In this document: positions 9,019 through 64,000 of the stretch, piece after piece
Numbering within the stretch: position 1 is the first letter of the stretch
Layout: every line of letters begins with the position of its first letter
From: Crambe crambe
Taxonomy: Eukaryota > Porifera > Demospongiae > Poecilosclerida > Crambeidae
Length of the DNA stretch: 64,000 bases
Direction: 5' to 3'
Assembly (NCBI GenBank): GCA_963924555.1
Contig: OZ004591.1
Coordinates: forward strand, 6,448,001 to 6,512,000
The notes under the pieces: model-generated
What the model was told of the DNA's origin: nothing
The model's database searches: none
Seen by the model: the letters and a program-made list of their open reading frames with translations, nothing else
Translations under genes and position numbers: made by a program

Positions 9019-10032
9019 ATGTGTTTGCTTCTTTATACAGTTTATATTGTTACTTTCACGTATTTTAGTCATGTTGAGGCTTCCACAGAAGGCCAATTTT
9101 ATCTTTCTCTCGGTTGTGACCAGTTTGGGAGTGGCATGACAAGTAACACGGCAGACTCTTGTGATATTATGAACAACAGCCAGAGATATGATATAGAGTG
9201 TTCATGTGGAGACAGACTGAAGAAAGTGGAGTCCTGCGATGAAAAAAGATTAAACGAAACTTGTGAAAGATATTCAATTATAAATGATCCTTCTTCAGTG
9301 TTCAGTTTCTGTGACAAAACATTAAGTCGTCTGGGCTTTGAGATATACAAAGAACCTGTAGCTGGTTCAAGGCTGAATCAGAGTTCAAATTTCACAACTT
9401 TCACTAACTCAACTCTAGAGGAAAAGATAAGGACACTGGAACGTTATCTTCAGGGATTCAAGAGTGTCTTAGACCGTACCATGCTCAGAGTCATGATAGA
9501 GTCGAAGGGGGCACGATGTAATTGCTTGGTAGGTGATTTAGACATAAACTGAATGTTCATGAATCTCTCTCTCTCTCACACGCACACACACACACAGGAT
9601 AACTATAAAAAGTGGTTGTGTGCATCTAATCTCCCTTTTTATGTCAACAAAAGCAATGGATGTGTGGATTGCAGAAGTGCACCTTGCATTGGCAACTCCT
9701 CCATTTGCAGACTGAAACCATGTATATCAGTCTGCCACAGTGTTCTTCAAACCTGCCCATACTACCTGCCTTCCCGCTTTCAGACTGTCCCACAGTCACT
9801 AGATGACATAAACCGACCTAATAGTAATGAGAGTGAGATCATATCTGGTGGTTATCCTGCCTTCGACTGCCCATCAAGATCAAGGAATTATTTATTTAAT
9901 GATCACTGTCGCAGGAGTTCAGAAGTACCGATATTTGGGTGTGATAGTAGTGCACCATACCAAGACAGCAGTACTAGTGCAGTCTTGATTTCAATATTAC
10001 TGTTTGTACTGATAATTAGAAGTATCACATGA
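9019..10032 (+). CDS. NALF: NALF/FAM155-type auxiliary subunit of the NALCN sodium-leak channel
   Basis: Two exons, 9019-9528 and 9598-10032, join in phase to give 314 residues. The N-terminus is a signal sequence (LLLYTVYIVTFTYFSHVEAS). Cysteine-rich motifs follow: CSCGDRLKKVESC, a helical stretch TLERYLQGFKSVLDR, CNCLDNYKKWLC, CISVCHSVLQTCPYYLPS, and IISGGYPAFDCPS. The C-terminus is a hydrophobic segment, SAVLISILLFVLIIRSIT. The order and spacing match the human NALF1/FAM155A core, which has KYEEFESVLHKYL, YKAWLC, CKQYCLEVQTRCPFILP and YGGLSSFICTG and also ends hydrophobically. NALF proteins are Mid1-like ectodomains that sit over the NALCN pore at the plasma membrane. The intron holds CT and CA repeats running into its 3' splice site. 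The vertebrate-style long low-complexity N-terminus is absent. UNC80, another subunit of the complex, lies about 47 kb downstream. Confidence 0.85.
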
Positions 10033-10101
10033 TTCATTTTATCATTCTTTTTTTACTCCAGATAATATATAAATAGTAGCTCAAATAAATATTTCAGTTA
10101 G

Positions 10102-62700: not shown

Positions 62701-64000
62701 CATATGCCCTGAAAATGGCCGCTTGTAATCTCCTCTTGGAGATCACCAGATTCTTGCGTGACATTCCGTCTCACTTCGCACCCGTTGCACTCTCGCAAGT
62801 GGGCACGCCCCTGTTATCTCGTGCGGGCACCCTAGACCGGTCCCACGATCGAAAGATATCAAACGCAAGCGTAGTCTCTTCCGAGATAGAGTACATACCT
62901 CGAATTCAAGAGTTCAAAATACCGCATTTTGGAAGCAGTTTATCAGTGGAAGAGCCAGAACCACAAGAGTTTATGAAAATGTCCTCCATCGATGAGGGAT
63001 TTTCGACCAGTCCTCGAAAGAAAAGAGCATCCGTGTATCTTCATGTGAATGCAGGGAGCAAAACTTCTGGTGGAAGTCTCTCTAGGAAGGTATCCACAAG
63101 AAGGGTGGTGCGATTGACCGATTCCACCAATGAAACGAGGGGTTCCCCTCGGAGTGGGTATACTCTGTCCTCTCCTTCAATTAGACATCGTCGGAGATCC
63201 GTGTCCTCGTCCACCATGCAGAGACCTCGTAAAAATTCTGTTCATACCAACTCATTTCTCGTATCCAGTCAAACCAGTCACATCACCGGCACGTACCAAC
63301 CGATAGAGATTCGGAGGAAATCTATTGCCGTACTTGATCCTCAGCATGATTTGGACCTCCCTCCGCCGACCACACCCTCCACCCCCAACCCATCCTCCCA
63401 GTTTTCCTTGGGCGGTAAGCCTGGTGCGGGTGGGGCCTCGTCTCTGGGGAACTCCCTAAACATCGGGTTCACGAAACTGAAGCGATCTGCCCAGCGAGCT
63501 TTTCGTAGACATGGAACGAAAGCGAGAAATATATCTGAAACAGCTTCCCCAAACTCCAGCCCCAGTCCAATGCAAAGGAAAAAGATGCGCACACCCTCAG
63601 AGTCCTACTCGCAGAAATCTGTTTTCTACCCTCAAATGGCAGAAGAGACGTGGCGTAACTACCCCTGGCTGGACATGGTGGAGCACTTGATTCTGATTGA
63701 CGCGTCCAATAAGAACCTTCGCTTGAGGAACAGGCGATCGTGTCAGGAACTCATCACAGCTCTCAAGAAAGTCTACTCCAGCACACTCCCGGAAGAAGAG
63801 GACTCCACCAACCACCAGAAGAAGGGAAGGAAGGGTCCCGCTGTACGGGGAGTTCCCGGGAAACCTAGCAGCACTATGAAGCACTCGAGCTCGTTAGGGA
63901 GTATTTTCATCCATCGCTTGACACTTAACAATAACTGCTTGGAACCCGTTTCGGATGGACATGGGTCAAACGTCATCCCTTACAGCAGAGGACAAAGCTT
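56760..64000 (+). CDS. UNC80: UNC80, scaffold subunit of the NALCN sodium-leak channel complex (5' part, open at the window edge)
   Basis: Three coding exons, 56760-60038, 61185-61946 and 62343 onward, join in phase 0. They are still open at 64000, giving about 1900 residues so far. Landmarks shared with human UNC80 are: KFFDVAVLQFLSTV with ILWALDYMKNLL; a RALIRS-like run LIRSMRRIQVHSPAIFRDAL followed by FQFLHVVLQYC; NNLLASIVAAVLSG; VVARSMVLMECAMFVRS; IRKWAEAIGEKL; SYALKMAACNLLLEITRFLR (human PFALKMAACQLLLEITTFLR); and DRSHDRKISNASV (human DRHRYERKISFAGV). A long Ser/Pro-rich insert lies at residues 340-760. The N-terminus carries a duplicated RWPxIKxVL motif (RKNRWPGIKRVLKSSS, RKRSRWPAIKNVLRNSS). 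An in-frame stop at 56730 makes 56760 the first ATG of this exon, but upstream exons are possible. UNC80 links NALCN to UNC79 and Src-family signalling. Confidence 0.9.
60290..60862 (+). repeat. Four-copy repeat of about 130-155 bp in UNC80 intron 1
   Basis: The segment ACAGATTCTTTCCACCCCCA (or TGCAGATTC...) starts at about 60366, 60498, 60641 and 60797. Each copy is preceded by CCAGTAAACTACTGTTCATT blocks and followed by ATGCATCACAGACCACAGTA-type sequence. Spacing varies because internal sub-blocks are gained or lost. Confidence 0.9.
62262..62340 (+). repeat. (CT)n microsatellite flush against an UNC80 3' splice site
   Basis: About 38 CT units end directly in CCAG at 62342, which opens the exon encoding CDGKTVVARSMVLMEC. 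The repeat is the entire polypyrimidine tract of this intron. Confidence 0.95.

What the first reader, a model, noticed from the sequence alone, without database searches (positions are those of the whole stretch)
9019..64000. NALF and UNC80, two NALCN-complex subunits, are physically linked in a probable sponge
The sequence shows a NALF/FAM155-type gene at 9.0-10.0 kb and the 5' part of UNC80 from 56.8 kb, same strand, about 47 kb apart. Both are obligate accessory parts of the NALCN sodium-leak channel in vertebrates and nematodes/flies (NALF/NLF-1, UNC80). In human, NALF1 and NALCN are both on 13q, while UNC80 is on chromosome 2. Linkage of NALF with UNC80 in an early-branching animal could be a relict cluster or chance. 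It also implies the complex is present in this organism. NALCN and UNC79 are not in this window.
Basis: partly seen in the sequence, partly recalled or inferred. Interest (0 to 1): 0.85.

Follow-up and report, generated by a model that had tools for sequence, protein, structure and literature searches.

The report
Two sponge leak-channel helper genes linked
In this sponge the genes for two helper proteins of a cell-membrane leak channel lie close together on one chromosome, but the channel itself and its fourth partner lie on other chromosomes, so the closeness is most likely ordinary chance.

Summary
UNC80 is certain: PF19424 and PF20262 match in order on the + strand from window 61.2 kb to about 5 kb past the window end. 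The 9019-10032 gene is a two-exon, 314-aa NALF/FAM155-type protein, by pairwise evidence only: BLASTP to human FAM155A E 5e-7; 0 of 5,000 Cys-fixed shuffles reach its score; Pfam Mid1 is not met. The gap is 46.7 kb, with about nine unrelated genes or gene-like frames between. NALCN lies on C15 and UNC79 on C5, so there is no four-gene cluster. Some pair of the four lying this close has about 0.4% chance, before allowing that the pair was chosen afterwards. A five-family linkage test put 1 of 5 on this chromosome (chance 23%): inconclusive. Presence of all four subunits was already reported for animals other than ctenophores. Best reading: chance neighbourhood. Other sponges could not be searched.

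The parts
9019..9528 (+). NALF/FAM155-type gene, exon 1: N-terminal hydrophobic (signal-like) helix, N-terminal lobe, region aligned to helix alpha1 of the human cysteine-rich domain (170 aa)
   Evidence: splice and translation; helix 2-18 in an otherwise poor model; BLASTP alignment to human FAM155A starts in this exon
9529..9597 (+). 69-bp GT-AG intron, phase 0, with an in-frame TGA at 9550-9552
   Evidence: predicted from sequence, no transcript seen
9598..10032 (+). NALF/FAM155-type gene, exon 2: alpha2 (YKKWLC), alpha3 (PC..VC..V..TCP), SGGYPAF.C and a C-terminal hydrophobic helix (144 aa + stop)
   Evidence: in the genome it matches only itself strongly, the other match being E 0.58
56760..60119 (+). 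Probable 5' exon of UNC80 (long open frame from the first in-frame ATG), same strand as the Pfam-matched exons downstream
   Evidence: no UNC80 Pfam match of its own
61161..62210 (+). UNC80 exon(s), start of the central region (PF19424 profile 7-42)
   Evidence: E 1.8e-4, 20.7 bits, cut-off 22.7
62211..63998 (+). UNC80 exon(s), central region (PF19424 profile 109-318); the gene runs on past the window end into L034
   Evidence: E 1.2e-9, 37.8 bits, cut-off 22.7; continuation
34600..48900 (-). MED12, lying between the two genes on the opposite strand (approximate span)
   Evidence: PF12145 in three exons: 1.2e-14, 2.1e-21, 9.9e-9; the 34.6-39.1 kb exons and the 48.5-48.9 kb frame are assigned by eye against recalled human MED12, with only chance-level or no Pfam rows

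Best explanation
The window holds two ordinary genes of the sponge NALCN (sodium/cation leak channel) complex. NALF makes a secreted or membrane-anchored extracellular cysteine-rich protein that would fold in the ER, escort NALCN to the surface and cap its extracellular loops. UNC80 makes a large armadillo-repeat scaffold that pairs with UNC79 on the cytoplasmic side. All four partners were found in the genome, on three chromosomes (NALF and UNC80 on C14, NALCN on C15, UNC79 on C5). The 47-kb proximity of NALF and UNC80 is most likely a chance neighbourhood with no role in assembly or regulation. Shown here: gene identities (NALF by pairwise evidence only), positions, and absence of a four-gene cluster. 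Inferred from human, worm and yeast work: the protein functions. Inferred from intervening genes, strand mixture and the linkage test: chance.
For: UNC80 by Pfam in collinear order. NALF by BLASTP to human FAM155A, E 5e-7, 0 of 5,000 Cys-fixed shuffles, and the top score among 1,498 open frames of the window and held loci, some of them overlapping copies. NALCN on C15: best PDB hit is NALCN at 78.9 bits against 45.4 for the best Cav; its repeat-II exon has a single match in the genome. UNC79 on C5, 2 of 3 matches over the cut-off. Intervening on both strands: PH-domain protein, OXA1-type insertase (under cut-off), protein kinase that I read as MST type, Rho GTPase, an unassigned ORF, UXS1-like epimerase, MED12, a sushi/Ig gene inside its span, a MACPF-like ORF (under cut-off). 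1 of 5 families from the recalled human neighbourhoods on C14, P of at least 1 = 0.23.
Against: TPP2, a recalled 13q33 neighbour of human NALF1, does lie on C14. Recalled human positions also put NALF2 near MED12 (Xq13.1) and NALF1 near STK24 (13q), which could mean NALF sits in an old linkage group. No other sponge or animal genome could be searched, so conservation of the linkage is untested.
Confidence: 0.76

Rival explanations
1. The linkage is inherited macro-synteny: NALF and UNC80 shared a chromosome (ancestral linkage group) in the animal ancestor, stayed on one chromosome in sponges, and are close here by within-chromosome shuffling, without function.
For: TPP2 (recalled human 13q33.1) is on C14. 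The window also has a protein kinase that I read as MST type and MED12, which by recalled human positions lie on 13q and Xq like NALF1 and NALF2.
Against: UPF3 is on C15, the NAXD-type carbohydrate kinase match on C20, RPE on C11, and LANC-like on C19 and C6: 4 of the 5 families are not on C14. In human, UNC80 is on another chromosome (recalled).
Confidence: 0.13
2. The linkage is functional: a conserved regulatory neighbourhood (one chromatin domain or shared enhancers) co-expresses two helper subunits of one complex.
For: Same strand, 46.7 kb apart, partners of one complex.
Against: About nine genes or gene-like frames of unrelated function on both strands intervene. The pore subunit and UNC79 are elsewhere. 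No expression or chromatin data.
Confidence: 0.04
3. The 9.0-10.0 kb gene is not NALF but another cysteine-rich secreted protein, for example a Frizzled-like CRD protein, so there is no linkage of two complex subunits.
For: No Pfam family matches the spliced protein at E 10, and Mid1 scores only 8.4 bits on exon 2. No PDB phmmer match to FAM155A. A six-frame search of the genome with the human domain did not pick up this gene at all. The FAM155A C-lobe is itself structurally Frizzled-like (PMC7672056, passages). The Tyr-Ser motif in the alpha1-alpha2 linker reported as conserved is absent here. The AlphaFold model is uninformative, pLDDT 36.
Against: Direct BLASTP to human FAM155A E 5e-7 over alpha1-alpha3 and beyond; shuffle control with cysteines held in place 0 of 5,000; tyrosine of alpha2, cysteine of alpha3 and the Cys-Pro after alpha3 present; the one match that the human domain gave in the genome (C19, E 0.41, a stop inside) lies antisense to a long open frame that I read as fibronectin-like and scores 83 against 92 for exon 2 alone and 118 for the spliced protein; no Frizzled Pfam match.
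Confidence: 0.07

Closest known systems
NALF1/NALF2 (FAM155A/B), NLF-1, fungal Mid1
   Same: Signal-like N-terminal helix, cysteine-rich domain with YK.WLC and PC...C..V...CP..LP motifs, GG.(P/S).F.C, C-terminal hydrophobic helix
   Different: 35 of 132 columns identical to human; long insertions between alpha2 and alpha3 and after alpha3; no Tyr-Ser motif in the alpha1-alpha2 linker; below the Pfam Mid1 threshold
UNC80 (armadillo-repeat scaffold of the NALCN complex)
   Same: PF19424 and PF20262 matches in order
   Different: No UNC80 Pfam match in the 1,121-aa 5' frame; Ser/Pro-rich low-complexity stretches
NALCN-FAM155-UNC79-UNC80 complex as surveyed by Senatore et al. 2025 (PMC12412391; sections 12 and 13 part 1 read, other passages seen)
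   Same: All four subunits found; the NALCN pore has E in repeats II, III and IV, in line with the lysine-free pores reported for sponges (PMC3557258, passages); repeat I was not seen
   Different: One match to the NALCN repeat-II exon here, whereas Amphimedon is reported to have two NALCN genes; a find in the paper's main text gave 0 for 'synteny' and 'chromosom'

Membership tests
UNC80 | UNC80 central region PF19424 above curated cut-off | tested here: met
   37.8 bits in the window and 84.5 bits in L034, against 22.7
UNC80 | UNC80 C-terminal region PF20262 above curated cut-off, collinear downstream | tested here: met
   131.3 bits against 22.1 in L034:3127-3822; two other exons at 20.0 and 19.8 bits are under it
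UNC80 | Conserved N-terminal region | tested here: inconclusive
   The 56757-60119 frame has no UNC80 family match at E 10
NALF/FAM155 | Sequence similarity of the cysteine-rich domain beyond cysteine content | tested here: met
   BLASTP E 5e-7; 0 of 5,000 Cys-fixed shuffles. The phmmer and six-frame searches did not find it
NALF/FAM155 | Tyrosine in alpha2, cysteine in alpha3 and Cys-Pro after alpha3 (features listed in PMC12412391) | tested here: met
   YKKWLC, PCISVC, TCP in exon 2
NALF/FAM155 | Tyr-Ser motif in the alpha1-alpha2 linker (PMC12412391) | tested here: not met
   Sequence there is VMIESKGARC, with no Tyr-Ser
NALF/FAM155 | Six disulfides and CRD fold seated on NALCN | tested here: inconclusive
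   Single-sequence AlphaFold model pLDDT 36, pTM 0.20, so fold not judged
Mid1 (Pfam PF12929) | Score above curated cut-off | tested here: not met
   8.4 bits on exon 2 against 28.6; none for the spliced protein; none in the genome, where the controls were silent too
Gene cluster of the NALCN complex | NALCN and UNC79 linked to NALF and UNC80 | tested here: not met
   NALCN on C15, UNC79 on C5
Conserved NALF-UNC80 linkage | Same linkage in other sponges or early-branching animals | not testable with these tools
   By the tool descriptions the collections open to me hold prokaryotes, viruses and plasmids; metagenome scans are capped at 0; say the own genome has no relatives here

The most novel reading that the evidence does not exclude
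NALF and UNC80 have stayed neighbours across sponges as a conserved co-regulated pair, a remnant of an ancestral arrangement of helper-subunit genes that other animals have dispersed.
Probability: 0.05. Interest if true: 0.5.

Novelty: new member of a known kind. Interest (0 to 1): 0.2.

Why it matters
It gives chromosome positions for all four parts of the leak-channel complex in a nerveless animal, and it places them on three chromosomes, so the parts are not held together by gene order. If the NALF-UNC80 pair proved conserved in distant sponges, it would be a case of linked genes for subunits of one ion-channel complex in animals, and gene order in sponges would become a way to study how the complex was put together.

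Tried and rejected
Pfam on each NALF exon and on the spliced protein: nothing over threshold. PDB phmmer with exon 2 and with the spliced protein: no FAM155A hit. PDB phmmer with the UNC80 exon 62211-63998: no UNC80 hit, only two chance rows. Mid1 profile over the genome: nothing, with the controls silent too, so it says nothing about absence. Human FAM155A domain against the genome: it missed the window gene and gave one match at E 0.41 on C19 with a stop inside, which is antisense to a long open frame that I read as fibronectin-like; rejected as chance. AlphaFold on the single sequence: pLDDT 36, so no fold search was run. The ion-channel matches at C5:1229-1267 kb, C14:1033 kb and C18:65 kb were considered as NALCN and set aside as Cav-like or CatSper-like by eye from recalled pore motifs, not by a profile test; not all of the 29 matches were classified.

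Test of conserved linkage: five single-copy or low-copy families written down beforehand (note) from recalled human neighbourhoods of NALF1 and UNC80; 1 of 5 on C14. Two of the five are less clean (carbohydrate kinase: one match of 33.9 bits with stops inside; LANC-like: on two contigs). Not supported, not excluded. Literature: NALCN+UNC80+synteny gave 0 papers; FAM155, UNC80, linked, Trichoplax (3 of 4 terms) gave 25 papers, 10 listed, and the listing shows no title or abstract on linkage; sponge, NALCN, contraction, Ephydatia (3 of 4) gave 75, 10 listed; the first search (3 of 5 terms) gave 109, 20 listed. The library lacks most subscription papers, so this does not show that the linkage is unreported.

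Full report
What the window is. The tool places the window at C14:6448001-6512000 of a 143,139,886-base genome in 119 contigs. Of the 13 contig lengths printed, 12 agree to two decimals with Table 2 of the Crambe crambe genome note (PMC12166358; passages seen), and one (C8) is 9.17 against 9.18 Mb. By these lengths C14 is chromosome 11 (7.33 Mb), C15 chromosome 12 (7.24 Mb) and C5 chromosome 3 (9.49 Mb). The species name is my inference from lengths.

UNC80. On the + strand, Pfam UNC80 central region (PF19424) matches 61161-62210 (20.7 bits, under the 22.7 cut-off) and 62211-63998 (37.8 bits). The gene runs on into L034 (C14:6512001-6522000), where PF19424 scores 84.5 bits and UNC80 C-terminal (PF20262) 131.3 bits, with two more PF20262 exons at about 20 bits against 22.1. 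Profile positions rise in order along the DNA, so this is UNC80. The long frame ending at 60119, whose first ATG is at 56760, has no UNC80 match and is assigned as the 5' part by position; it matches only itself in the genome.

NALF. The gene at 9019-10032 has two predicted exons (170 and 144 codons) around a 69-bp GT-AG phase-0 intron. The spliced 314-aa protein matches no Pfam family at E 10, and exon 2 alone gives Mid1 at 8.4 bits against a cut-off of 28.6. Direct comparison with human FAM155A (a stretch recalled from memory and then found identical to PDB 7wji_D) gives BLASTP E 5e-7, 35 of 132 identities. A Smith-Waterman score of 118 compares with a mean of 50.4, s.d. 9.1 and maximum 100 in 5,000 shuffles that keep every cysteine in place. 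Among 1,498 open frames of 50 aa or more in the window and held loci (overlapping loci repeat some), exon 2 ranks first against the human domain with 92; the next independent frame, 83, is the C19 match that a genome-wide search with the human domain had brought in. The alpha2 tyrosine, alpha3 cysteine and Cys-Pro named as conserved in PMC12412391 (section read) are present; the Tyr-Ser motif of the alpha1-alpha2 linker is not. Against the assignment: the six-frame search with the human domain did not find this gene, nor did PDB phmmer find FAM155A from it. No better NALF was found in the genome. AlphaFold without an alignment was uninformative (pLDDT 36). I hold the NALF assignment at about 0.93.

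The rest of the complex. UNC79 (PF14776) matches three exons at C5:488135-490515, two of the three over the cut-off. NALCN: of 29 Ion_trans matches, four at C15:6741012-6745961 (-) lie together, and the repeat-II exon there has NALCN as its best solved relative (78.9 bits; best Cav 45.4) and one match in the genome (a divergent second copy could be missed). The pore residues readable there are E (repeat II), E (III) and E (IV); repeat I was not in the held loci. Sponges were already reported to lack the lysine (PMC3557258, passages), and all animals examined except ctenophores were reported to have all four subunits (PMC12412391). So the complex's presence is expected, and its genes lie on three chromosomes.

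The linkage. From the NALF stop to the UNC80 ATG there are 46,727 bases, same strand. Between them lie, on both strands: a PH-domain protein (-), an OXA1-type insertase (-; PF02096 under cut-off), a protein kinase that I read as MST type (-), a Rho GTPase (+), an unassigned ORF (-), a UXS1-like epimerase (+), MED12 (-) with a sushi/Ig gene on the other strand inside its span, and a MACPF-like ORF (+; under cut-off) (subfamily names are my reading). I count these as about nine; introns make the count rough. The chance that a given pair lies this close is 0.065%, and that some pair of the four does is about 0.4%. But the pair was picked after reading roughly a dozen genes, so this is not a fair probability. 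To ask whether C14 keeps an old linkage group, I wrote down five families beforehand from recalled human neighbours: UPF3 fell on C15, carbohydrate kinase on C20, RPE on C11, TPP2 on C14, LANC-like on C19 and C6. At least one of five on C14 has probability 0.23 by chance. This neither supports nor excludes shared ancestry of the neighbourhood.

How it works. By published work on FAM155A, NLF-1 and Mid1 (structure passages; yeast, fly and worm passages), NALF would fold in the ER, help carry NALCN to the surface and sit on its extracellular loops; UNC80 with UNC79 would form the cytoplasmic armadillo pair. Nothing that I saw in the sequence suggests that gene order matters to this. The most likely state of affairs is a chance neighbourhood of two ordinary subunit genes. 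The test that would change this, other sponge genomes, could not be run here.

Noticed in passing
window 1-2330 and 2861-6532 (+): A single-exon 1,223-aa membrane-receptor-like frame with no Pfam match, preceded by broken partial copies of it at 87-93% DNA identity: probably a recent tandem duplication with decayed pieces.
   Followed up: partly
window 41320-44050 (+) inside MED12 (-): A sushi/immunoglobulin-domain gene (PF00084, PF07679) lies on the opposite strand within the apparent span of MED12.
   Followed up: partly
L007 and L018 (C5:1228273-1232151 and C5:1241833-1245654): Two Cav-like regions about 13 kb apart with blocks of 83-99% DNA identity, which suggests a recent partial duplication of a calcium-channel gene.
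   Followed up: partly
L010 (C14:1032143-1035673) and L012 (C18:63996-67433): Channels with CatSper-like pore motifs by eye, the first on the same chromosome as the window.
   Followed up: no
C15:6741012-6745961 (L006, L014, L025, L027): NALCN with E in the pores of repeats II, III and IV, and a long purine-rich low-complexity stretch near the repeat-III exon.
   Followed up: no
C15:414086-414556: UPF3 lies on the same chromosome as NALCN; human UPF3A and NALCN are both recalled to be on 13q, a possible old linkage not tested further.
   Followed up: no
window 49362-52290 (+): A large frame with a weak MACPF match (0.0019, 18.8 bits against 21.5) followed by a frame with no Pfam match (51400-52290).
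   Followed up: no
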